From assembly GCA_903840415.1 (NCBI GenBank), contig CAIMFY010000017.1, positions 186,001 through 250,000 on the forward strand: a DNA stretch of 64,000 nt, in the 5' to 3' direction. The notes under the pieces are model-generated. The model saw only the letters and a list, made by a program, of their open reading frames with translations. It ran no database searches and was not told the origin of the DNA. A program made the translations under genes and the position numbers. This stretch comes from an uncultured Opitutia bacterium (GTDB taxonomy: Bacteria; Verrucomicrobiota; Verrucomicrobiia; Opitutales; Opitutaceae). Positions 11,412 through 24,673 of the stretch are shown one piece after another; position 1 is the stretch's first letter, and each line of letters starts with the position of its first letter.

Positions 11412-12209
11412 TCAACTTTTCGGCGGCACCGGTTGCGAGGCGGCGACGGTGCTGGGCGCCTCGTTCATCCCTTTGCGGATGAATTCCGTGATCTGCGACG
11501 GGTCCTTAATTTTGACCGTGCGCTGGTTCGTGGTATCTTTGCCGATGTAGTCGGCCGTCGCCGACGCGAGGATCGGCAGATACTTGCGCAGATCTTTGCT
11601 TTCATCCTCGGCGGAGACGTTGACGCTCCAAACTTCCGCGGGCGGACGGCCTTCGCTGGCTGGTTTGTTTTCGCGGGCGGTGATGCGGAGATACTTTTCG
11701 TAGATGGCCACCTGGCGCGGCACGTCGTCGAAGCCGACAAGCTCCGTGCGCGGAGGTTGATAGACGGCCACCGTGCGGAAACCGGTATTTCCTTTCGCGT
11801 CCGTCACCGCCACTTGCTCATAACGCACCCCGCCGCCGGCCTGCGCGTAAACGGGCACGCTGACGGTTTCGATCTTCGTCCGCGGCGAGTCCATGCCGTA
11901 GTCGAGTTCAACGATCATGTCGGCCCGATCCTGATTTACCGCTTCGTAGAGACCTTTGCTGGAAAGCGCGGTTTTGACGTAGTCGGCAGCTTCCCGGTAG
12001 CGGAGGCTTTCGTCGCCGAGCGCGGGATTCTTGCTCTTGAGTTTGTAGGATTGCGGCTCGCCGGAGGCCCCTGCGGTTGAGGCCGTCGCCCGCGACTTGC
12101 TGATCGAATCAACCTTCACTTCATAGGTGGAGGTCGCACATCCAGCGCCGAACAACACCAGCGAACTGGCGAGCACGACGGGATAAATTCGACGGGCAAC
12201 GCGGAGCAT
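11412..12209 (-). CDS. Putative outer-envelope lipoprotein (DUF4136-like)
   Basis: 265 residues. Signal peptide with lipobox FGAGC (Cys at residue 24). The mature region has the DUF4136-like pattern: a segment predicting one subunit repeat (RYREAADYVKTALSSKGLYE), then ADMIVELDYG and a later segment EVWSVNVSAEDESKDLRKYL. ATG 12209 was chosen because it gives a proper signal peptide; the frame is open further upstream but there it overlaps the next gene. The family name is tentative. It lies 82 bases after the glycine-zipper lipoprotein gene on the same strand and may share its promoter. Confidence 0.7.
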   Translation of the reverse strand: MLRVARRIYPVVLASSLVLFGAGCATSTYEVKVDSISKSRATASTAGASGEPQSYKLKSKNPALGDESLRYREAADYVKTALSSKGLYEAVNQDRADMIVELDYGMDSPRTKIETVSVPVYAQAGGGVRYEQVAVTDAKGNTGFRTVAVYQPPRTELVGFDDVPRQVAIYEKYLRITARENKPASEGRPPAEVWSVNVSAEDESKDLRKYLPILASATADYIGKDTTNQRTVKIKDPSQITEFIRKGMNEAPSTVAASQPVPPKS

Positions 12210-12291: not shown

Positions 12292-12999
12292 CTAAGATCC
12301 GGGCTTGACCGCAGCCGAGGGCGCGGGTGGGGCCGCCGGAGCGGCGGGCGCCGCATCGGATTTCTTGGCCGGGGTTGCGACGGTGGAGCGCGAGTTGGGA
12401 TCGTCGCTCTTCAGGCGGGCGAGTTCTTCCTCAAGGCGCGCAATTTCGGCTTCGTTGGTAAGTTGCTTTTCGTGCAACTCATCCAAGGTCTTTTTCCGGG
12501 CGAGCGCGGCGGCTTTTTCATTCTGCAACTTCTTCAGGCGATCCGAGGTGTCCTCCGTTTTTTTCTGCGCGTCGTTCAGCTCAAGATCGGAGATGCGGAA
12601 ACCTTGGGCGATGGCGAGTTCTTCGTCTTCGGCGGCTTTGCGCTTGGCCTCCTCGGATCGTTTCTTGGCGAGTTCCTGCTGGTAAGCGCGCTCCTGCGAG
12701 AGGCGGTCCTGCTCTTTCCGATCCTTAGCTTCTTGGACCATGCCAATGATGCCGCCGGTGATCGCGCCGAGGGCAGCGCCGCCGATGATGCCGGTGCCGG
12801 AACCCAAGCTGCTGTTGTTGCCGACGATCGCACCGGCCGCACCGCCCACCAAAGCACCGGTGCCCGCACCGCTGGCCGTCTTAGACGGCGCGACGCCGGA
12901 TGAGCAACCGCTGCCAGCGAGCACCGCCAAGGCGGTCGCCAGGCAGGCGAGTTTATTGAGCGAATAACCGGAACCAGTGAGGGGAAGCGTTGACTCCAT
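12292..12999 (-). CDS. Lipoprotein with glycine-zipper and coiled coil
   Basis: 235 residues. Lipobox LAGSGC (Cys near residue 32). Next comes a glycine-zipper segment (ALVGGAAGAIVGNN and GIIGGAALGAITGGIIG, about residues 48-86), then a long charged coiled coil (about 90-195, with Lys/Glu/Arg/Gln heptads) and a Pro/Ala-rich tail. Glycine zippers of this kind occur in outer-membrane-associated lipoproteins. It faces away from the MotA-like gene, with a shared 222-base intergenic region that contains a promoter-like site for this gene. Confidence 0.75.
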   Translation of the reverse strand: MESTLPLTGSGYSLNKLACLATALAVLAGSGCSSGVAPSKTASGAGTGALVGGAAGAIVGNNSSLGSGTGIIGGAALGAITGGIIGMVQEAKDRKEQDRLSQERAYQQELAKKRSEEAKRKAAEDEELAIAQGFRISDLELNDAQKKTEDTSDRLKKLQNEKAAALARKKTLDELHEKQLTNEAEIARLEEELARLKSDDPNSRSTVATPAKKSDAAPAAPAAPPAPSAAVKPGS

Positions 13000-13221: not shown

Positions 13222-14076
13222 ATGATTTCACGCAACAAGGGATTTTTCTCCGTCGAATTCATGGTGCCCATTCTCGCGTTCCTCGTCGCGCTCATCAGCG
13301 TCGAGATTTTCTACGCGACCTATGTGCGGCCGAACGCGAAGGACTTCATGGTCAAACGCCAAATCCTTATGTCGCAGGGCTCCGGCGGCGACTTCGTCCG
13401 GGAGCGCCCCATATACATCATCATCAAGGATCATGAGCCGCAGATGGAAATCGTCTTCTGTCTTTGGGGCATGATGGTGCTCGGCTATAAGTTCATCCAA
13501 GTCACGAAGGAGCGGGCGCTCTTCAAGCAGAACTTCATCCGCGTGCAACCGGGCGAACGCATCATCCCCGAGGACGCGCTCGATCGTTACAAGGAACTCC
13601 GGACCGCCGTGGAGCGCGAGTCGCGCTGGCGCGAGCGCCTGCTCCCCGAATGTCTCCTCGCTGCGCTGCACCGCTTCCACGCCAGCAGTTCGATCCAGGA
13701 CGCGGCCAACGCCATCCGCGAACGCGCCGAACTCGCCGGCGACCGCCTCGACTCGCAGCTTTCGCTCGTGCGCTACATCGCGTGGGCGATTCCGGCCATC
13801 GGCTTCATCGGCACGGTGCGCGGAATCGGCGATGCGCTCAACTTTGCCGAGCAGGCGATCCACGGCGACATCTCGTCGGTCACGACCGGCCTCGGCCTCG
13901 CCTTCAACTCCACCTTTGTCGGTCTCAGCATGTGCATCGTCCTGATGTTCTTCCTGCACATGGTGCAGCAACGGCAGGAAGCCTTCGTCATTGAGACGCA
14001 AACTTACTGTCGCGACAAATTGATCGACACGATGAAGGTCCCGACAAAGGACGAAGCCACCGGCACGTTTGCCTGA
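13222..14076 (+). CDS. MotA/TolQ/ExbB-type proton-channel protein
   Basis: 284 residues. Four hydrophobic helices are predicted near 13-35, 74-93, 184-203 and 225-248, with a cytoplasmic region between the second and third. The conserved core IPAIGFIGTVRGIGDAL (190-206) and VTTGLGLAFNSTFVGLSM (220-237) carries the pore threonines typical of ExbB/TolQ/MotA. Such proteins form a pentamer around two B-subunit helices and convert proton flow into movement. No ExbD, TolR or MotB gene is adjacent; the two VWA proteins downstream have a matching membrane Asp and are the likely partners. First gene of a plus-strand run to 17698. Confidence 0.9.
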   Translation: MISRNKGFFSVEFMVPILAFLVALISVEIFYATYVRPNAKDFMVKRQILMSQGSGGDFVRERPIYIIIKDHEPQMEIVFCLWGMMVLGYKFIQVTKERALFKQNFIRVQPGERIIPEDALDRYKELRTAVERESRWRERLLPECLLAALHRFHASSSIQDAANAIRERAELAGDRLDSQLSLVRYIAWAIPAIGFIGTVRGIGDALNFAEQAIHGDISSVTTGLGLAFNSTFVGLSMCIVLMFFLHMVQQRQEAFVIETQTYCRDKLIDTMKVPTKDEATGTFA

Positions 14077-14096
14077 GCCCCTCGGCCCACCGCACC

Positions 14097-15590
14097 ATGC
14101 CCACCCTTGGAATCGAACTATGCGACGCCGCGTTGCGCGCCGCCAACTGCACCAACTCCGAGGTTCGGCTCCTCGATGTCACCAGTCAGGATGGCGCCAC
14201 CGAGTGGCCCGGATTCGCCTACCACGAAGGCGCGACCTTCTCCTTCGGTCGCGCCGCCGAGGATATGTGGTTCGTGCACCCGCGCCGAGTCGTCCACACG
14301 TTTTGGGCAAAGCTCGCGCACGATTCCGCGTCCTCGCTCAACGTCGCCAACCGCTCGCCGTCCTTCTCAGAACTCGCCTACTTTTTTCTCCGAGAATATT
14401 CCGGCCGCATCGCCGCGACCGCCGGCGCGCCGTCCAGCGTCGTCTTCGCAGTGCCCGGCTCCTACCTGAAGGATCAAGCCCACGAAGACGAAAAAATCGG
14501 CCTGCTCCTCGGCATGGCTGCCGAGCTCAAACTCCCGCTCGCGGGTATCGTCGATCTGGCCTGCGCCGCTCTCTGCGATCCCCGCGCTCCGGGATTCAAC
14601 CCCACCCTGCCCGTCGTCGTCGTCGATGTGCAACTCGAAGGGGCCGACCTCACGCTCCTCGCCGTCGACGAGAAGCTCGAACGAAAACATTTTCTCCATC
14701 TCCCGAATTCCGGTTACGCGCAGCTCCTCAAGCATCTCACCGCCACGATGGGCAACCGCTTCCTGCGCGCGACGGCGTTCGACATCCTCGAGGACGGCCG
14801 CGTCGAACAGACGTTTTTCCGGCAGACGAAAGATTTTCTGGAGAGCGGCGCCGACGAGCATCGCTACCAACTCAACACCGCCACCCGCAACTACGAGATG
14901 ATCGCGAAACACGATCAACTTGTCGGCGACTTGCAGGGCTACGTCTCCACGCTCGTCCAAGGCCTGCACGCGTTCATCGATCACACCGCCCACGCCCCCG
15001 GCCTGTGCACGGTGGCGCTGACTGCTCGCACCGCGGCGCTCCCCGGCCTCGCGGCCCGGCTACGCGTCGCCGGATTCACACGGCAACTGCGACTGCCGGC
15101 CGGTGCCGCGGCAGCCGGTGCCGCTCGGATCGGCGAGCAGCGTCTGCGCCCGCTCCCCGATGTGGCCGATGTGCCGGTCGAGACCGCCGTCCCGCTCTCC
15201 GATACGCGCCGGATGACGACCACCGTCTGGGAAGCGCGCCTGCAAAAATCCCGCCGCGCCGAACCGCGCCTCGTGCCCACGCACGCCATTCTCGATGGCA
15301 TCGGTCACGCGCTCGGCGGCCATAATCGGTTTACGATCGGCCTCGCAATCGACGGCGCCAATCTCGTTCTCCCCGACGCCTTTAACACTATCGACGACTG
15401 CCTCGTGCCGCTGCTCCGCGAAAACAGCCGGCTCTGGTTCGTCGATCCGGCGCCACCGGGCGATGCGCCCGCGGCCAGCCCGGCGCCCCGCGTCTCCATC
15501 GACGCCGGCGATCGGCTCACCATTCGGTGCGGCCCCGCCTCGGCCGAGGTGATCTTCGCCCATTGCGCTGTCCCCGGCGCTCCCGGCTGA
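14097..15590 (+). CDS. Hsp70/actin-fold-like protein with degenerate ATP site
   Basis: 497 residues, no signal peptide. The N-terminal part resembles the Hsp70/actin fold: a phosphate-1-like start (TLGIELCDAALRAA, 3-16), the segment SVVFAVPGSYLKDQA (114-128) equivalent to the Hsp70 VITVPAYF region, and GIVDLACAALCDP (150-162) in the place of NEPTAAALA. The phosphate-2 loop, normally DxGGGTxD, reads VVDVQLEGADLTLL (175-188) and lacks the glycines, so ATP hydrolysis is doubtful. The last 120 residues form a separate region with a beta-rich look. Located between the channel gene and the VWA genes, it is probably a cytoplasmic partner of that system. The fold assignment is by eye. Confidence 0.6.
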   Translation: MPTLGIELCDAALRAANCTNSEVRLLDVTSQDGATEWPGFAYHEGATFSFGRAAEDMWFVHPRRVVHTFWAKLAHDSASSLNVANRSPSFSELAYFFLREYSGRIAATAGAPSSVVFAVPGSYLKDQAHEDEKIGLLLGMAAELKLPLAGIVDLACAALCDPRAPGFNPTLPVVVVDVQLEGADLTLLAVDEKLERKHFLHLPNSGYAQLLKHLTATMGNRFLRATAFDILEDGRVEQTFFRQTKDFLESGADEHRYQLNTATRNYEMIAKHDQLVGDLQGYVSTLVQGLHAFIDHTAHAPGLCTVALTARTAALPGLAARLRVAGFTRQLRLPAGAAAAGAARIGEQRLRPLPDVADVPVETAVPLSDTRRMTTTVWEARLQKSRRAEPRLVPTHAILDGIGHALGGHNRFTIGLAIDGANLVLPDAFNTIDDCLVPLLRENSRLWFVDPAPPGDAPAASPAPRVSIDAGDRLTIRCGPASAEVIFAHCAVPGAPG

Positions 15591-15620
15591 GCGGCGCGCA
15601 GTTGTCGTTCCCGCCCCGCC

Positions 15621-16688
15621 ATGTCCATCGCGAACAAACGCCGTGAAACCGAGGTCTTCAGCCTCGCGTTCCTCGACTGCATTTGCTGCGGCTTCGGCGC
15701 GGTCATCCTCGTCTTCATCCTCACGATTTCGCAGAAGCAAAAGATCGATCAAACTGACATCGACGAACTCCGCGACCGCGTCCACCAAATGGCCGCCCGG
15801 ATCACGACCAGCGAACAGGATCTCGACCGACTCGCGCGGGTCCTCGCCGCCGCGCAACTCGAGTTGCAGGACGTCAACGCGAAGAACAACCAGGACGAGC
15901 TCAAGCTCTCCGAGCGCCGCCGCGAACTGCTCCTCATGCTCCAGCAAACCGGGGCGATGAAGGACGCACTCCACACTCTGCTCGGCGAAAAGAAAAATCT
16001 CCCGACCGAGGATCACGCGCCGATCCCAATCCCCAACGTCGATCGCCGCCAATACCTCACCGGCGTGCGGCTCAACGGAAATTTCGTCGTGTTCGTCGTC
16101 CGCATGTCCGGCTCGATGCTCGGCGAAACCATCGACGATGCCGCCTCGCGCCTCGGTGAGACCGATGAGAAGAAACGCGAGTCGCCGAAATGGCAGCGTG
16201 CGATCCATTCACTGGAATGGATGATCGCCTCGCTCGGCCCCGAGACGCATTTCCAAATCCTCTTCTTCAACGAAGACGTCGTCCCCGTGCTCCCCGATCG
16301 CGCCGACGAGTGGTTCAGCACCACCGACAAAAAGACTGTCGCCGAAATTGTGAAACGCCTGCACCAGGTTGTCCCCAGCGGCGGCGCCAATCTCGAGCGC
16401 GCCTTCGCCTCCGTGCGCTACCTGCCTCGCCTGCCCGACAGCATTGTGCTCTTCACCGATGGCCTCCCGACCAAGAGCGAGACGCTCCCCTATGACGGCG
16501 AAGTCGGCGAGGAGCAGCGCATCCGCTTCTTCGAACTCGCCGTCAAGCAACTCCCGCCCCGCATCCCGGTGAGCACGATCATGTTTCCGATGAACGGCGA
16601 TCCGGCCGGACCCGCGGAATACTGGATGCTCGCCAACGCCAGCCGCGGCGCCTTCGTCAGCCCCTCGAAAAGCTGGCCCGACACATGA
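15621..16688 (+). CDS. Membrane-anchored VWA protein 1 (MIDAS Asp replaced)
   Basis: 355 residues. The N-terminus VFSLAFLDCICCGFGAVILV (12-31) is a single membrane helix with an Asp at residue 19, as in TolR/ExbD/MotB. A coiled coil (about 40-125) leads to a VWA domain (about 150-345). The metal-ion site motif expected as DxSxS reads RMSGS (161-165), Arg replacing the first Asp (codon CGC at 16101). Later VWA elements are present: SGGANLERAFASV and DSIVLFTDGLPTKS. The coiled coil and VWA domain probably face the periplasm. It overlaps VWA protein 2 by 4 bases, so the two are made together. Confidence 0.85.
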   Translation: MSIANKRRETEVFSLAFLDCICCGFGAVILVFILTISQKQKIDQTDIDELRDRVHQMAARITTSEQDLDRLARVLAAAQLELQDVNAKNNQDELKLSERRRELLLMLQQTGAMKDALHTLLGEKKNLPTEDHAPIPIPNVDRRQYLTGVRLNGNFVVFVVRMSGSMLGETIDDAASRLGETDEKKRESPKWQRAIHSLEWMIASLGPETHFQILFFNEDVVPVLPDRADEWFSTTDKKTVAEIVKRLHQVVPSGGANLERAFASVRYLPRLPDSIVLFTDGLPTKSETLPYDGEVGEEQRIRFFELAVKQLPPRIPVSTIMFPMNGDPAGPAEYWMLANASRGAFVSPSKSWPDT

Positions 16689-17698
16689 TCCGCCGCCGCC
16701 AAACCAGCGTCTTCAGCCTCGCGTTCCTCGACTGCATTTGCTGTGGCTTCGGCGCGATCATCCTCATCTTCGTCCTCAGCATTGACTCGAAGGAAAAGGA
16801 CAAACTCGCGCTGCTCGCTGACCTCCGCAAAGTCATGGCCGCGCAGCTCGCGTCGATGGCCAAGCTCAGTTCCAGCAAGGAAGATCTCACCCGCAGCAAC
16901 GCCCGCATTTCGACCCTCGTCACCGACGCCCGGATTCGCAACGATTCGACCCACGCGCTCCTCGACGAACTGGAGGCGCAACTCTCATCCGAGAAAAAAG
17001 GCCAGGAGGCGATGCTCGTCGACATCGACGACCTGAAAAAAGAAATCGCCGCTCGTCAGAAGAAACCCGAGATGGTGCTGCCCGAGGAAAAGCCCGCGCC
17101 AGTGGGCCTGACGATTGGCAGCAACTACCTCGCCTTCGTCATCGACACCTCCGGCTCGATGCGCGACCCCAACACCGATGGAGTGTGGGGTATCGCCATT
17201 CGGAAGATCGGTGAGGTGCTCGACGTCTACCCGCAAGTCGAAGGCGTGCAGGTGTTGGATGCCGACGGCCGCTTCGTGCTGAATGCCGGTCGCAACGGCG
17301 CGATGACCTGGCTGCCCGACACCCGCGACACCCGCGATTCCATTACCCGCACGCTCCGTCGCTACAACGCTGAGACGATCAGCAATCCCGTCCCCGGCAT
17401 CCTGCGCGCCATTCGCGCGCTCTATGACGCGAACAACCCGAACATGAAGATGGGCATCTACGTCTTCGGCGACGAATTCAGCACGAGCGAATCCGCCGAC
17501 TCCGTGATGCGCACACTCGACCAACTAAATCCTGCCGACGAAAACGGTAACCGTCGGATAGTGATCAACGCGGTGCTTTTCCCCACGACGATTCGTTACA
17601 CCTTTTCGATGGGCAATACCGGCCTCCGCCTTGCGAACCTGATGCGCGAAGTCTGCTACGTTCACGGCGGCACTTTAATCGCCCTGCAAGATTTGTGA
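16685..17698 (+). CDS. Membrane-anchored VWA protein 2 (intact MIDAS)
   Basis: 337 residues, paralogue of the preceding protein. The N-terminal helix SVFSLAFLDCICCGFGAIIL (8-27) is almost identical, with Asp at residue 16. A coiled coil spans about 35-125. The VWA domain begins with YLAFVIDTSGSM, giving an intact DTSGS metal site (154-158), and ends with the strand GTLIAL. It is the last gene of the plus-strand run. Two paralogous B-type subunits with one channel protein suggests a heterodimeric arrangement, an inference from gene order and motifs only. Confidence 0.88.
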   Translation: MIRRRQTSVFSLAFLDCICCGFGAIILIFVLSIDSKEKDKLALLADLRKVMAAQLASMAKLSSSKEDLTRSNARISTLVTDARIRNDSTHALLDELEAQLSSEKKGQEAMLVDIDDLKKEIAARQKKPEMVLPEEKPAPVGLTIGSNYLAFVIDTSGSMRDPNTDGVWGIAIRKIGEVLDVYPQVEGVQVLDADGRFVLNAGRNGAMTWLPDTRDTRDSITRTLRRYNAETISNPVPGILRAIRALYDANNPNMKMGIYVFGDEFSTSESADSVMRTLDQLNPADENGNRRIVINAVLFPTTIRYTFSMGNTGLRLANLMREVCYVHGGTLIALQDL

Positions 17699-17743
17699 GC
17701 CGGCGCTAGGATGCAGCCGGACCGCCCGATTGAGCGGTGGCGC

Positions 17744-18775
17744 TTAGAGGCCGAGAATCATTCGGAGCAGCGTGACGACGACTTGCAGCGGATTGCCGCC
17801 ACCGCCGCCGGACGAACCACCCCCACCGCCACCAGATTGACCGCTTTGGCCACCCGACGAACCACCGCCGCCGGACGAACCACCACCCTGTGAACCCGAC
17901 TGGCCGGACTGGCCTCCCTGCTGTCCGCCTTGCTGGCCACCTTGCTGGCCACCTTGGCCGCCCGACGAACCACCGCTCTGTCCACCGCTACTGCCACCAC
18001 CGCCGCTGGCCGACGCGACTTTCTGCAGTCCACCCTGACCCGCACCGACGATCCCATTCGGATCGTTGCCGCCGGACCCATCGCTCGAACCATCGCCCGA
18101 GCCGCTGCCGCTCGTGCCGCTTTTCCCACTACCACTCTTGCCGCCTTTGCCACCAGCGCCCGAACCATCGGCGCCGGCACCACCACTTTGATCGCCGGTG
18201 CCGTCGCCACCCGCGAGTTTACTGCCGTCGGCACTGGTGCCAGAGCCATCGCCATTTCCGGAGCCGTCCTTGCCCCCGGCACCCGTGCCATCCTTTCCGC
18301 CCGCACCGGAACCGTCCTTGCCGTCACCCGCGCCACCGCCAGAACCGTTGGCATCGTTGCCTGAACCTGAGCCGTCCTTGCCGCCGCCTTTGCCGTAGAC
18401 GCCGGAGTAAGTGAACTTCACGTAGTCAACCTTGCTGCTGGTGAGCGCGGGGCGGTTGCGAATCGCGGCGTCGCGCACGGCTTCCAGCTCCCATTTCTTT
18501 TTTTTCGCCGCCTCGCTGTCGGCAAGCGGGCCAAACATGTAGGTGAGATTCTCGTGACGGTAGCGGACATACCAACCCTCGTCACTCGGGCCGAGGCCGG
18601 TGATGTTGATGCCGGCATATTTCGTCTTGAAATCGTCGGCCTGCAAATTCCACAAATCGTCGATGGCCTCGACGGGGTAAATCACGGTGGTCGCCCGGGC
18701 GCACCCGAGGGAGGCGAACCACAGTGCGAGCCAAAGCCTAAAGCGGAGATTTTTCACTGGGGAATTCGCGCGCAT
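17744..18775 (-). CDS. Secreted Gly/Ser-rich low-complexity protein
   Basis: 343 residues. Signal-peptide-like N-terminus (about 1-29), a compact conserved-looking domain (about 30-120, with VEAIDDLWNLQADDFKTKY and GWYVRYRHENLTYMFGPLAD), then about 200 residues almost entirely Gly, Ser, Gln, Asp and Lys in short repeats (GSGAGGKDG, GGQQ), ending in a hydrophobic helix NPLQVVVTLLRMILGL. The frame is consistent and the low complexity is on the amino-acid level, so it is coding and not a simple DNA repeat. It converges with the VWA operon and is likely envelope-exposed. No named family recognised. Confidence 0.75.
   Translation of the reverse strand: MRANSPVKNLRFRLWLALWFASLGCARATTVIYPVEAIDDLWNLQADDFKTKYAGINITGLGPSDEGWYVRYRHENLTYMFGPLADSEAAKKKKWELEAVRDAAIRNRPALTSSKVDYVKFTYSGVYGKGGGKDGSGSGNDANGSGGGAGDGKDGSGAGGKDGTGAGGKDGSGNGDGSGTSADGSKLAGGDGTGDQSGGAGADGSGAGGKGGKSGSGKSGTSGSGSGDGSSDGSGGNDPNGIVGAGQGGLQKVASASGGGGSSGGQSGGSSGGQGGQQGGQQGGQQGGQSGQSGSQGGGSSGGGGSSGGQSGQSGGGGGGSSGGGGGNPLQVVVTLLRMILGL
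17917..17952. repeat. 12-bp tandem repeat inside the Gly-rich gene
   Basis: CTTGCTGGCCAC is present twice exactly (17929-17940, 17941-17952), preceded by a diverged copy. It encodes the repeated GGQQ units of the protein read on the minus strand. Slippage here would change repeat number without breaking the frame. Confidence 0.7.
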
Positions 18776-18781
18776 CGAAAA

Positions 18782-19579
18782 TTACAACCCCGCCGGCATT
18801 GTGCGGCCCTTCTCGACGCCACGGCCAGTGTTACTCGGGCTGGTCGTGCCAGCGCCACCGCCGGAACCTTTGCCGATCTTGCTTTCCATTTGCTGCGTGC
18901 TGCCAGCCGCCACCTGACCCACCACTCCCGACGAATTCGCTTCCGATTTTATCTGCATCGACGAGTCGCCGATGGCCACCTGCTGCGGCTTGGGGACGTT
19001 ATCACCCGGGGCGCCACCGCCACCGGACTGGCCGGAAGCGGCGTCGCCTTCCAAGCCGGCAACTTGAATGCCTTCGGCCTTTCCATTCGGATCGCCACCC
19101 TGTGCGCCGCCTTGGCTGCCGCCGGCGCCCTGACCGTTTTGATTCGCCTGCTGATCGCCTCCGGCGGCTCCGCCACCGCCTTGCTGTGCGCCTTGGTTGG
19201 CAGATTGCTGGCCCTGCGATCCGCCGCCGCCTTGGGGCAAACCCGCCATCTGGCCGCCGCCGCCCTGCTGACCTTGTTGAGATTGATTCTGCTGCTGGCC
19301 GCCGCCCCCGCCGGATTGATTCGGATTTTGCTGGCCGCCCACATTGCCGCCCTTCGCGTTTTCGTCGCCCGGCATTTCAAAATCTCCGAGCATGCCGTAA
19401 TCCGGGTGCTTCTCCGCCGGCTGAGTCGATCCGTCGAGCAACACCGGATCGGGTAGCGGTCCCTTGGCGCCGGATCGCACCGCGGCTCGCGGTGCGGTGC
19501 CTGAACTGGCCGAGGTTTGCGCGCGACCGGACGCGAGCAGGAGCGAGGCAAAGCAGAGCAGGAGCAGACGACAGCGCAT
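18782..19579 (-). CDS. Secreted Gly/Gln-rich low-complexity protein
   Basis: 265 residues. Signal peptide at the N-terminus (MRCRLLLLCFASLLLASGRA). A short ordered start (PDPVLLDGSTQPAEKHPDYG) is followed by a Gly/Gln/Asn-rich region (about 75-195) and a tail (VAIGDSSMQIKSEANSSGVV) with Ser/Gly. It lies 6 bases upstream of the Gly/Ser-rich gene and 8 bases after the TPR gene on the same strand, so the three are one operon. Composition is prion-like or matrix-like; function unknown. Confidence 0.75.
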   Translation of the reverse strand: MRCRLLLLCFASLLLASGRAQTSASSGTAPRAAVRSGAKGPLPDPVLLDGSTQPAEKHPDYGMLGDFEMPGDENAKGGNVGGQQNPNQSGGGGGQQQNQSQQGQQGGGGQMAGLPQGGGGSQGQQSANQGAQQGGGGAAGGDQQANQNGQGAGGSQGGAQGGDPNGKAEGIQVAGLEGDAASGQSGGGGAPGDNVPKPQQVAIGDSSMQIKSEANSSGVVGQVAAGSTQQMESKIGKGSGGGAGTTSPSNTGRGVEKGRTMPAGL

Positions 19580-19587
19580 GGGGAAAA

Positions 19588-21297
19588 TCAGAGACCGTTG
19601 GAGGCGAAATTACAGACGACGGTGACCGACGGAGGCGGGACTCCGTTCCGCACCTGCAGCAGAATATGCACATCCTGATAGCCCTTCCGCCGGCCGATGA
19701 TCGCGTAGTCGCCGGGGAGCATCTTGATCGAGCTCGTTTCAAATTGGCTCGGCAGCCGGTAATTCTCGATGGAGAACCACGTCTTCCCGTCGGACTTGAA
19801 CGTGACTTCCACGGGTTTGTTCTGAGTCATCAGCATTTCGTGGAGTTGCTGCACCTTCTCGCTGTTGACGAGGTAGGCGGGCTTGACCGACATCGCCTGA
19901 TTAAAAATGCGGATCGCCGCCTGAAATTCTGCCTTGGCCGCAAATTGCTCGGCGTCCTTCACGTAGCGTTCGTATTGGAGGAGCGACCGGATCATGGTGC
20001 TGGCGCGGATCAGGCCCTCCTTCGCGTCAGTGTGGGTTGGCTCGAGTTGCAACGTTTCGCGGTAGGCGTCGAGCGCGGACTTCCATTGGTGCTCGTTCTC
20101 GTAGGCGTAGGCTTTGTTGAGCGCCTTCTTCACCGCATCGGTGTGGGCGTTTTCCCGGGCGGACTTCAGCATGGTCGAAACGTCGCTCCGCTGCGGATAA
20201 ACTTTCAGCGCGTTCTGGCACTCGGTCACGACCTTATCCCACTCGCGCCGCTTGAACGCCCCCTGCGCCGCCGTGAAGGCCGCATCGAACTTGGTTTCCT
20301 TTTCGAGCCGAGCCGCGCGCGCCTGTCCCTGTTGGGCGAGCGCCGACATCGCATCGAGCGCAAACGCCTTCGAGTAGGAGTCCGCCGCCTGTGCATATTG
20401 CGCCTTCTTTTCGAACTCCTCACCTTGTAGCAGCAGCGCGAAAACCCGATCGATGTTTTCCGCGCGTTTGAGTCCGCGCATCGCGTCCTCGTTCCCCGGC
20501 GATTTTTCGAGCGCCGCGTTAAACGCTGCCTTCGCCGCATCGCGTTGGCCCTTTGCGAGCGCCTGCTGACCCCGGACCAGACTCTCCTGCACGTGCCGCG
20601 CGAGCGCGTCGGATGCCTTCTTTAATTCCGCGAAACCGTGGTCGAACACTTCCTTGGCGCCGGTGAAATTGCCGTCGTTGAGCAGGCGCCGACCCTCCGC
20701 CGCATTTTCCATCGCCGCCTCCAAGGTGCCTGGGGCAAGGTTGCGGGCGATCTCCAAATCTTTCATGCGCACTTGGATGTTGCCGTCCGCCTGCTGCGCA
20801 TCTTGCCGAGCTTTGACGTTTTTGGCGAATGCATCGATCTCTTTGTTGAGCGCATCGAAGGCCAGAAACGCGCGCGAAAATTCACGCCCACGCAACAGCG
20901 CCTCGCCGTCCTGAAACGCTTTTTCAAGGAGGATGAGTCGCTGCAGCTGCACCGGGTGATCCGTTGGCAGGCGCCGCAATCCAGCGAGCTGCTTCGACGA
21001 AGTTTCATGGGCAAATTCCGCCTTCGTCTCGCTGATGTATCCCGAATTCGCCTCCGCCGCCGTGCCCGCGCCGGCCACCAGTTCGGAGCGCGGCCGGAAG
21101 ATGTCGGGGCCGAGGATGAGTTTGGCGACACGAATGACGATGCCAGCGGCAAACAACAGCCCGAAAAAGCCGCCGACTGACCACGCGACGATGCGTTTCC
21201 ACGTCCACGGCGATTTCACCGGCTCGCGATCAGCTTCGGGATTCCAGTGGATCACCCGGCGTTTTTTACCGGGGTTCGCGTCGTTTTGCTCAGCCAT
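19588..21297 (-). CDS. Membrane-anchored TPR protein with PEGA-like C-terminus
   Basis: 569 residues. A membrane helix near 34-58 (IVAWSVGGFFGLLFAAGIVI) anchors a large soluble part. It has tetratricopeptide-like helical repeats (for example ALAKGQRDAAKAAFNAALEK and YAYENEHQWKSALDAYRETL, about 110-480). The last 80 residues resemble a PEGA-type beta domain (WFSIENYRLPSQF, MLPGDYAIIGRRKGYQDV). ATG 21297 was chosen because the upstream in-frame codons lack conservation marks. First gene of the minus-strand operon opposite the channel/VWA operon; probably a scaffold in the same envelope complex. Confidence 0.75.
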   Translation of the reverse strand: MAEQNDANPGKKRRVIHWNPEADREPVKSPWTWKRIVAWSVGGFFGLLFAAGIVIRVAKLILGPDIFRPRSELVAGAGTAAEANSGYISETKAEFAHETSSKQLAGLRRLPTDHPVQLQRLILLEKAFQDGEALLRGREFSRAFLAFDALNKEIDAFAKNVKARQDAQQADGNIQVRMKDLEIARNLAPGTLEAAMENAAEGRRLLNDGNFTGAKEVFDHGFAELKKASDALARHVQESLVRGQQALAKGQRDAAKAAFNAALEKSPGNEDAMRGLKRAENIDRVFALLLQGEEFEKKAQYAQAADSYSKAFALDAMSALAQQGQARAARLEKETKFDAAFTAAQGAFKRREWDKVVTECQNALKVYPQRSDVSTMLKSARENAHTDAVKKALNKAYAYENEHQWKSALDAYRETLQLEPTHTDAKEGLIRASTMIRSLLQYERYVKDAEQFAAKAEFQAAIRIFNQAMSVKPAYLVNSEKVQQLHEMLMTQNKPVEVTFKSDGKTWFSIENYRLPSQFETSSIKMLPGDYAIIGRRKGYQDVHILLQVRNGVPPPSVTVVCNFASNGL

Positions 21298-21566: not shown

Positions 21567-22391
21567 ATGATGAAATCGCTCCCCGCTCTTACCGCCCTGG
21601 CGGCTGTGTCGCTCTTCGCCGGCTGCTATCAGGTGCCGGTCACGGGCCGCCACGCGCTCAGCCTCGTGGATGACCGGGAAGTCACCAAGATGAGCATCGC
21701 GACGTTCGATGAGATGAAAGCGCATACGAAAATCTCGAACGACAAGGCCCGCAACGAGCAACTCCAGCGCGTCGGCGAACGCATTCAGCACGCCGTGCCG
21801 ATTTGGGACATGCCCGATGCGGACTGGGAATTTGTCGTGTTCGACTCACCCGACATCAACGCCTTCGCGATGGCCGGCGGTAAAGTCGGCGTGTTCATGG
21901 GCCTCTTTAAAATCGTCGAGAACGACGACCAACTCGCGTCAGTCATCGGTCACGAAATCGGCCACGTCACCGCCAAGCACGTCCACGAAAATCTCTCGCA
22001 GCAGCTCGCGATGCAGACTGGCGGTATGATTGGCGGTATCGCGATGCTGGGCACCGGCGCGGGGTTGCTCGGCACGGAGGCGGTCATGTCCGCCTACGGT
22101 CTCGGCGCTCAGGGCATGGGCGCCGCCTTTGATCGCAAAAAGGAAAAAGAAGCCGACCACATCGGCCTGATGTATATGGCCCACGCCGGCTACGATCCGG
22201 AAGAAGCGATCAAAGTGTTGGAGAAACTCGAGGAGGAAACGGGCCAGCAAGCCGCGTCGCAGTCGAGCTTCACCTCGACCCATCCCTCGAACCCCGAGCG
22301 CATTCAGCAGTTGCGCGACTTGATGCCGCAGGCGATCAAGGCGCGGGAGCAAAGCGGCCTCGCGCCACCGCCTCCCGTGATCATGAAGTGA
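21567..22391 (+). CDS. M48-family zinc metallopeptidase lipoprotein
   Basis: 274 residues. Lipobox LFAGC (Cys 20). The zinc motif HEIGH is at 129-133, followed by the third-ligand region KEKEADHIGLMYMAHAGYDP. SFTSTHPSNPERIQQLRDL near the end is characteristic of LoiP/YcaL/BepA-type M48 peptidases. These work in the periplasm on misfolded or misassembled outer-membrane proteins. Two adjacent ATGs (21567 and 21570) are possible. The gene stands 269 bases from the TPR operon and is transcribed away from it. Confidence 0.92.
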   Translation: MMKSLPALTALAAVSLFAGCYQVPVTGRHALSLVDDREVTKMSIATFDEMKAHTKISNDKARNEQLQRVGERIQHAVPIWDMPDADWEFVVFDSPDINAFAMAGGKVGVFMGLFKIVENDDQLASVIGHEIGHVTAKHVHENLSQQLAMQTGGMIGGIAMLGTGAGLLGTEAVMSAYGLGAQGMGAAFDRKKEKEADHIGLMYMAHAGYDPEEAIKVLEKLEEETGQQAASQSSFTSTHPSNPERIQQLRDLMPQAIKAREQSGLAPPPPVIMK

Positions 22392-24426: not shown

Positions 24427-24574
24427 GTCGTGGATGGTGAAAGAAGGGGCGAAATCGAAAGCGGGAACTCCCCGCTAATCCACGCTAATTTTCGCGAATC
24501 GGAATACCGCGGACTGATCGGCTCTGGCTTCTGGCAGGGCTGGGTTTCCGACCCAGCGCGCATAAAGAAAAAAA

Positions 24575-24673
24575 GTGGCCAGGCACTCCACGGCACTAAG
24601 AGAACGTCGTTGCCGTTGCTACCTTCCGGTCCTGGCGGAGTTCACGCGCCTGCTCATGCATGGCACCTGGCCG
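24575..24673 (-). ncRNA. ffs: Signal recognition particle RNA (4.5S-type, small bacterial form)
   Basis: About 99 nt on the minus strand. The universal SRP core is present: GCCAGGACCGGAAGGTAGCA, with the GGAA tetraloop closed by ACC/GGT and the CAGG/AGCA internal loop. In E. coli the closing pairs are TCC/GGA, so the first pair has changed on both sides, a compensatory change. The terminal stem GGCCAGG (5') with CCTGGCC (3') closes the RNA, and seven Ts follow immediately (24574-24568) as a terminator. The RNA binds Ffh and targets membrane proteins. Ends are set by the stem and T-run and may be off by 1-3 nt. It lies 37 bases after the Spy-like gene. Confidence 0.92.

What the first reader, a model, noticed from the sequence alone, without database searches (positions are those of the whole stretch)
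13222..21297. Candidate proton-driven envelope machine with VWA-type B subunits
Seven genes in two facing operons: a MotA/TolQ/ExbB-type channel, an Hsp70/actin-fold protein, two paralogous membrane VWA proteins, two secreted Gly/Gln-rich proteins and a membrane TPR/PEGA-like protein. No ExbD, TolR, MotB or TonB gene is present. The VWA proteins carry a stator-like membrane Asp, so they may be the B subunits, with a VWA domain in the periplasm where MotB has its peptidoglycan-binding domain. I know of no described system with this composition. Seen: motifs and order. Known: the channel family works as a 5:2 rotary stator. Inferred: that these genes form one machine.
Basis: partly seen in the sequence, partly recalled or inferred. 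Interest (0 to 1): 0.85.

Follow-up and report, generated by a model that had tools for sequence, protein, structure and literature searches.

The report
Proton-driven envelope motor with vWA axle
This is a conserved set of bacterial genes that appears to build a proton-powered motor in the inner membrane whose moving part carries von Willebrand-type binding domains; the motor core was predicted in print in 2025, while the wider list of partner genes found here does not appear in the text of that paper that was read.

Summary
The seven genes are real and correctly placed. The central idea, that two membrane vWA proteins replace ExbD/TolR/MotB as B subunits of a TolQ-like channel, is well supported but not new: PMC12204202 (2025) describes unlike vWA pairs beside tolQ, without tolR/exbD, with the transmembrane Asp and AF3 models. 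Added here: the Asp is invariant (92 of 92 VWA1, 96 of 96 VWA2), as are two channel threonines (84 of 84); VWA1 and VWA2 are two separate clades; each of the six other channels found in this genome has ExbD or MotB beside it. The set behaves as one system: TPR occurs in 20 of 23 vWA-positive and 0 of 14 vWA-negative genomes searched, often unlinked from the motor genes and then mostly with GLY genes beside it. The 'actin/Hsp70' protein is an Hsp70 fold with an FHA domain. Proteobacterial operons add PEGA/sulfatase-modifying-factor, lipoprotein-like and M48 genes. Against: no profile homology of the vWA helix to ExbD, low model confidence at the Asp, no complex modelled here, biological output unknown.

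The parts
13222..14076 (+). CHAN: MotA/TolQ/ExbB-type channel, 284 aa, four hydrophobic segments, pore threonines T198 and T231
   Evidence: Pfam PF01618 1.6e-15; aligned to TolQ structures with both Thr on TolQ Thr; T198 and T231 84 of 84; hydropathy
14097..15590 (+). ACT: protein with Hsp70-type ATPase fold and C-terminal FHA domain, 497 aa, taken to be cytosolic (inference); phosphate loop degenerate
   Evidence: profile vs PDB, AF2 pLDDT 92.6, Foldseek Hsp70 8.7e-19, motif columns
15621..16688 (+). VWA1: one transmembrane helix with Asp19, coil, vWA domain; first MIDAS Asp replaced here (R161)
   Evidence: Pfam VWA_3 1.1e-8; Asp 92 of 92
16685..17698 (+). VWA2: one transmembrane helix with Asp16, predicted helical stalk to residue 124, vWA domain with intact DTSGSM
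   Evidence: AF2 model, Foldseek vWA 1.4e-7, Asp 96 of 96 and MIDAS D/S/S 96 of 96
17744..18775 (-). GLY1: probably secreted protein, conserved N-terminal region and Gly/Ser-rich tail
   Evidence: homologues beside TPR in linked and unlinked modules
18782..19579 (-). GLY2: probably secreted Gly/Gln-rich protein with a short N-terminal motif of the loose type DPxxxD(G/A)
   Evidence: motif read by eye, with variants, in the 10 homologues printed; the script's own pattern matched only 1 of the 10
19588..21297 (-). TPR: one N-terminal transmembrane segment, TPR repeats, conserved C-terminal domain (PEGA-like, weak)
   Evidence: Pfam TPR_2 6.3e-9; hydropathy; in 20 of 23 vWA-positive and 0 of 14 vWA-negative genomes
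21567..22391 (+). M48 metalloprotease with lipoprotein-like start, divergent from TPR; probable accessory part
   Evidence: Pfam M48 5.8e-40; in 11 of 37 verrucomicrobial loci, all 11 beside TPR, and in 3 of 8 unlinked TPR stretches; start
12292..12999 (-). lipoprotein-like glycine-zipper protein, divergent from CHAN; probable accessory part
   Evidence: Pfam Gly-zipper_YMGG 1e-4, below cut-off; clustered in 23 of 37 verrucomicrobial loci
11412..12209 (-). lipoprotein-like protein, no Pfam family; probable accessory part
   Evidence: no Pfam match; clustered in 21 of 37 verrucomicrobial loci; start

Best explanation
A proton-driven inner-membrane motor of the TolQ/ExbB/MotA kind in which one VWA1 and one VWA2 form the B subunits. 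Inferred mechanism: five CHAN subunits surround the two vWA transmembrane helices; the Asp of each helix takes up protons beside the channel threonines and the vWA pair turns or tilts, as in 5:2 motors. A helical stalk (predicted for VWA2, about 85 residues beyond the membrane, roughly 12-13 nm if straight) carries the vWA domains towards peptidoglycan and outer membrane, where they grip a ligand, VWA2 through its metal site. The Hsp70-FHA protein is a cytosolic scaffold or switch, possibly reading a phosphothreonine. The second module (TPR, GLY1, GLY2, often M48) supplies the periplasmic or surface target. Most likely output: pulling on or remodelling outer-membrane or surface structures, comparable to Tol-Pal or Agl-Glt. 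Shown: gene content, conservation, co-occurrence, predicted folds of ACT and VWA2. Inferred: pore insertion, rotation, stoichiometry, proton flow, output.
For: Transmembrane Asp invariant: VWA1 92 of 92, VWA2 96 of 96; channel T198 and T231 84 of 84, counts including 3 loci held twice. Both Thr align with TolQ Thr. In this genome 7 channels were found: five have ExbD beside them, one has MotB, CHAN alone has none; all 7 ExbD found sit beside those five. Across 93 loci the only ExbD hit is in L040, beside another, TolQ-like channel. VWA1/VWA2 split cleanly, support 1.0, 188 sequences. Of 57 relatives, 22 have strong VWA2 hits and all 22 have a strong CHAN; one further genome (G049, 82% complete, hit at a contig end) has CHAN only. 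Named loci with enough flank: CHAN in 62 of 64, and the two exceptions have CHAN elsewhere in their genomes. TPR 20 of 23 vs 0 of 14, ACT 21 of 23 vs 0 of 14. In 8 unlinked TPR stretches, GLY1 homologues lie beside TPR in 6, GLY2-like genes in 6, M48 in 3. CHAN-VWA1-VWA2 without ACT between them in L081, L087, L098, L100, L102, L113, L115 and in G029 and G047, where ACT was sought genome-wide, suggest the motor core. Independent AF3 complex models in print (PMC12204202).
Against: Profile comparison of the vWA transmembrane segments with 15 ExbD proteins gave no signal above control membrane segments, so descent from ExbD/MotB is not shown. No complex was modelled here, and the VWA2 monomer model is least sure around the Asp (mean pLDDT 49-53 over residues 1-20, 73 over 21-30). 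The hydropathy cut found four segments in only 20 of 85 CHAN sequences (3 in 58, 2 in 7), so topology is not firm. TPR was not found in 3 of 23 positive genomes: G028 (84% complete), G033 (83% complete) and G430. G038 has a weak VWA2 hit (E 2.6e-4) without any CHAN; by score I take it for another protein. The first MIDAS Asp is absent in 38 of 92 VWA1. I know of no measurement of proton flux or phenotype.
Confidence: 0.68

Rival explanations
1. The vWA proteins are TolA/TonB-like transducers bound at the edge of a channel that uses an ordinary ExbD/TolR pair encoded elsewhere.
For: A separate vWA family of this type, with its own tolR pair, is proposed in PMC12204202.
Against: No free ExbD found in this genome: all 7 lie beside other channels. 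The helix has an invariant Asp; PMC12204202 says this second family lacks the SHLS motif of edge-bound transducers; I did not test that motif myself.
Confidence: 0.08
2. Channel and vWA pair form a static scaffold or signalling complex: the Asp is structural, and the vWA domains act as metal-dependent adhesion or chaperone modules without proton-driven movement.
For: No homology of the vWA helix to ExbD by profile; an invariant Cys four residues after the Asp and Gly-rich residues behind it that the 15 ExbD N-termini printed do not have at that place.
Against: Both pore threonines and the TM3 Pro are invariant, as expected if the proton path is under selection.
Confidence: 0.16
3. The genes are neighbours by chance or by general envelope clustering, not one system.
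For: In some genomes the TPR/GLY module is unlinked.
Against: The unlinked module is kept in vWA-positive genomes and was not found in the vWA-negative genomes searched (20 of 23 vs 0 of 14); the motor set recurs across phyla.
Confidence: 0.03
4. The machine drives gliding or surface motility like Agl-Glt rather than envelope upkeep or surface assembly.
For: Same outline as Agl-Glt (passages of PMC3169522): channel, two unlike B subunits, cytosolic FHA, TPR proteins, separate envelope clusters; some loci add an OmpA-family or a weak TonB_C protein.
Against: No motility data; the B subunits and the secreted proteins are different families.
Confidence: 0.2

Closest known systems
[quoted passage not shown] 2025, PMC12204202, section 8 and Fig. 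4 legend read)
   Same: Channel plus a pair of unlike vWA genes, no tolR/exbD, conserved transmembrane Asp, Proteobacteria and Verrucomicrobia
   Different: That section and legend do not name an Hsp70-FHA protein, PEGA-sulfatase-type, lipoprotein or M48 genes; a TPR gene is named only for its other vWA family. The figure itself and the supplement were not seen, so the drawn clusters may show some of these. Identity by sequence with its Idiomarina family was not tested.
TolQR, ExbBD, MotAB
   Same: Channel family and pore threonines; single-pass partner with an Asp in the helix
   Different: Partner ends in a vWA domain instead of an ExbD/TolR or OmpA-type domain (recalled), and comes as two old paralogues; no profile homology of the helix to ExbD
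Agl-Glt gliding machinery of Myxococcus (PMC3169522, passages seen)
   Same: Channel with two unlike B subunits, FHA and TPR proteins, clusters at separate places
   Different: AglQ and AglS are ExbD/TolR proteins; no vWA axle; I saw no Hsp70-FHA protein in the passages
Zorya (ZorA/ZorB)
   Same: Channel domain weakly similar (PADLOC ZorA 1.6e-6)
   Different: No other Zorya subunit matched among the seven proteins

Membership tests
MotA/TolQ/ExbB channel family | PF01618 domain over cut-off | tested here: met
   57.4 bits, cut-off 22.9
MotA/TolQ/ExbB channel family | Conserved Thr in the two pore-lining helices | tested here: met
   84 of 84; aligned on TolQ Thr
vWA-axle motor family of PMC12204202 | Pair of unlike vWA genes beside tolQ without tolR/exbD | tested here: met
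vWA-axle motor family of PMC12204202 | Asp in the transmembrane helix | tested here: met
   92 of 92 and 96 of 96
vWA-axle motor family of PMC12204202 | Helices predicted inside the pentamer | not testable with these tools
   only monomers can be predicted here; AF3 in print
vWA-axle motor family of PMC12204202 | Sequence relation to the Idiomarina family used there | not tested
   no Idiomarina record among the named loci; Bowmanella (L127) is the nearest named relative seen (kinship recalled)
vWA-axle motor family of PMC12204202 | No SHLS motif | not tested
   stated in the paper for its family, not checked here
ExbD/TolR (PF02472) | Sequence homology of the B subunit | tested here: not met
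   no Pfam match, no profile signal above controls (short segments, low power)
Agl-Glt | ExbD/TolR-type AglQ and AglS | tested here: not met
Zorya | ZorB, ZorC, ZorD/E present | tested here: not met
   no matches among the seven proteins
MoxR-vWA conflict systems (PMC7159879) | MoxR-type AAA+ ATPase partner | tested here: not met
   none among the seven proteins; 'MotA' and 'ExbB' do not occur in that paper's main text

The most novel reading that the evidence does not exclude
A two-module envelope machine in which a pseudo-Hsp70-FHA protein switches a proton motor whose unequal vWA pair grips, through the VWA2 metal site, the secreted low-complexity proteins GLY1/GLY2 or the TPR protein and pulls them through or along the envelope: a catch-and-pull device unlike TolA/TonB.
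Probability: 0.2. Interest if true: 0.85.

Novelty: new member of a known kind. Interest (0 to 1): 0.6.

Why it matters
If right, the known set of proton-driven rotary motors gains a branch in which the axle itself ends in a ligand-binding vWA domain. The parts list here (Hsp70-FHA, TPR, GLY1/GLY2, M48, lipoprotein-like proteins) turns a one-paragraph published prediction into a testable system, with named strains among its hosts (Microbulbifer, Bowmanella, Seongchinamella; titles). It is not rare: 28 of 369 sampled genomes of the class reached from the Microbulbifer genome carry strong VWA2 hits.

Tried and rejected
Tried without result: profile comparison of vWA helices with ExbD (no signal above controls); VWA2 relatives in viral contigs (none confirmed) and plasmids (none); promoter and terminator scan (no more than in shuffles); NCBIfam (no family over its cut-off). 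Rejected: Zorya (only the channel domain is similar), MoxR-vWA conflict systems, chance neighbourhood.

Rows dropped and cautions. My working label 'DUF4136' for the gene at 11412-12209 was recalled and is not supported by Pfam; I do not use it. The 'CHAN' rows contain spurious antisense ORFs, so channel counts come. L084, L099 and L129 were dropped before counting VWA1, because the hit there was the VWA2 gene; L049 and L050 were dropped from the family sets (L050 is still in the hydropathy count of 85). The sets hold three loci twice (L031/L054, L035/L060, L041/L067, judged by equal contig lengths). The 93 loci leave out L031, L038, L043, L044, L049, L050, L060, L067, L125 and L127 as duplicates, split copies, second copies or non-members; L192 and L193 stand in for L125 and L127, and L194-L196 were not added. 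In some searches, G032 (vWA-positive, partial) was left out, and the 14 negatives were chosen by me from the 34 relatives without a match. Vertebrate-style significance for shared ancestry was not corrected.

Full report
Observation. The seven genes are present at the stated places: CHAN 13222-14076, ACT 14097-15590, VWA1 15621-16688, VWA2 16685-17698 on the + strand; GLY1 17744-18775, GLY2 18782-19579, TPR 19588-21297 on the - strand. Pfam confirms the channel, one vWA and the TPR protein. VWA2 and ACT needed structure. The VWA2 AF2 model (mean pLDDT 84.3, pTM 0.59) shows a helix 21-124 followed by an alpha/beta domain that Foldseek matches to vWA (4fx5, E 1.4e-7); the stretch around the Asp is of low confidence (mean pLDDT 49-53 over residues 1-20). 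The ACT model (pLDDT 92.6) matches Hsp70 (E 8.7e-19), and the family profile matches Hsp70 (3.7e-7) and, at its C-terminus, chains that I recall as FHA domains (KIF13B 1.3e-5 and others). In the window protein the DLGGGT-type phosphate loop of Hsp70 (motif recalled) is not kept, and the aligned columns in relatives do not restore it, so ATP hydrolysis is doubtful (inference).

Core motor. In 84 CHAN, 92 VWA1 and 96 VWA2 sequences (3 loci held twice), the two pore threonines and the transmembrane Asp never vary. CHAN aligns to TolQ structures (E 0.0014) with both Thr on Thr. VWA1 and VWA2 fall in two fully separate clades, support 1.0, 188 sequences: an old duplication kept as a pair. In VWA2 the metal-site D, S and S are invariant (96 of 96); in VWA1 the first Asp is kept in 54 of 92, so the two partners are probably not equal in function.

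No other B subunit. In this genome (98% complete, 124 contigs) 7 MotA_ExbB channels and 7 ExbD were found. Five channels have ExbD directly beside them, and a sixth stands beside a MotB gene (read from the sequence). All 7 ExbD lie beside those five channels. CHAN is the only channel left without one. Over 93 loci, one ExbD hit was found, in L040, beside another TolQ-like channel.

Co-occurrence. Of 57 relatives, 23 have a VWA2 match at E 0.001: 22 strong ones and G038 (E 2.6e-4), which by score is another protein and has no CHAN. All 22 have a strong CHAN hit; one more genome, G049, 82% complete, has CHAN only, cut at a contig end. The two exceptions, L119 and L129, have CHAN elsewhere in their genomes. 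ACT lies upstream in 59 of 67 with at least 3 kb of flank. For TPR and ACT I searched 23 vWA-positive genomes (the 22 relatives without G032, plus the genomes of L119 and L129) and 14 of the 34 vWA-negative relatives, each at least 96% complete: TPR 20 of 23 against 0 of 14 (Fisher p 1e-7); ACT 21 of 23 against 0 of 14. The negatives were picked by me, not at random, and shared ancestry is not corrected for, so the p-value is only indicative. The genomes with hits were not searched for CHAN, ACT or TPR.

Two modules. Eight stretches around TPR genes that lie away from the motor genes were read: L206-L212 and L215 (in L209 the motor is about 60 kb away on the same contig; in the draft genomes the distance across contigs is unknown). 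GLY1 homologues lie beside TPR in 6 of 8 (L206-L210, L212); GLY2-like genes, by model or by eye, in 6 of 8 (L206, L207, L208, L210, L211, L212); M48 in 3 of 8 (L206, L207, L208). L215 showed none of these. Verrucomicrobial loci also keep a glycine-zipper lipoprotein-like gene (23 of 37) and a second lipoprotein-like gene (21 of 37) beside CHAN. In the other 56 loci the operon holds TPR (44), a PEGA plus sulfatase-modifying-factor-domain protein (45), a lipoprotein-like protein (44), a Gln/Ser-rich protein (28), two further lipoprotein-like proteins (29 and 28) and M48 (22) (denominators include cut contigs; domains of the Microbulbifer copies). With at least 7.6 kb of upstream flank, 43 of 43 of the non-verrucomicrobial named loci hold TPR; in verrucomicrobial named loci with 4.5 kb downstream it is linked in 5 of 17. 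Seven named loci have CHAN-VWA1-VWA2 without ACT between them (L081, L087, L098, L100, L102, L113, L115), as do G029 and G047, where ACT was not found genome-wide; this suggests the minimal motor.

Spread. Strong hits (E at or below 1e-80): 23 of 387 genomes of the window's phylum (34 of 387 at E 0.001), 28 of 369 of the class of the Microbulbifer genome (46 of 369 at E 0.001). Titles of named loci include Opitutales, Kiritimatiellae, Gammaproteobacteria, Desulfobacterales, Myxococcales and Vicinamibacteria. No VWA2 relative in viral contigs or plasmids.

Prior work. PMC12204202 (section 8 and Fig. 4 legend read in full; [quoted passage not shown] Searches of its main text for actin, Hsp70, M48 and FHA gave nothing on this family. 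Figures are not held and supplements were not available, so I cannot say what its gene diagrams show. Other searches (open part of PubMed Central only) showed no other description of the system in the titles and abstract starts listed (one search listed 25 of 39). Passages only were seen of PMC12505986, PMC9389320, PMC12905483, PMC7159879, PMC8195603 and PMC3169522.

Against. The profile test for descent of the vWA helix from ExbD was negative, with short segments and low power. The complex was not modelled here. Hydropathy gave varying helix counts for CHAN. The biological output is a guess from parts: outer-membrane or surface work like Tol-Pal or Agl-Glt.

Verdict. Real, conserved and interesting; the core is a published prediction; the wider system is the new part.

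Noticed in passing
window 15621-17698, motif after the TM Asp: A Cys four residues after the Asp is invariant in VWA1 (92 of 92) and VWA2 (96 of 96), with Gly at +7 also invariant. A disulfide, metal or packing role is open.
   Followed up: partly
L037 and L038 (genome G009): This genome carries a second, diverged copy of the motor on contig C300, with a weaker TPR hit on the same contig.
   Followed up: no
L214 and L129 (genome G430): CHAN and VWA1 lie on one contig and VWA2 at another place without them, so the pair can be split.
   Followed up: no
L192:3142-4530 and L193:18882-19901: A TPR protein with a weak TonB C-terminal match (E 2.2e-4, below cut-off) stands upstream of the operon in Microbulbifer; a similar protein in Bowmanella.
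   Followed up: partly
L113:11072-11692: OmpA-family protein directly after VWA2 (E 3.2e-15), a possible peptidoglycan anchor.
   Followed up: no
L050:6077-7078 (genome G053) and hits in G037: More distant channel relatives (about 30% identity, E 1e-15 to 1e-18) without a VWA2 hit in those genomes; their partners were not studied.
   Followed up: no
window 24574-24672: Small SRP RNA gene on the - strand.
   Followed up: no
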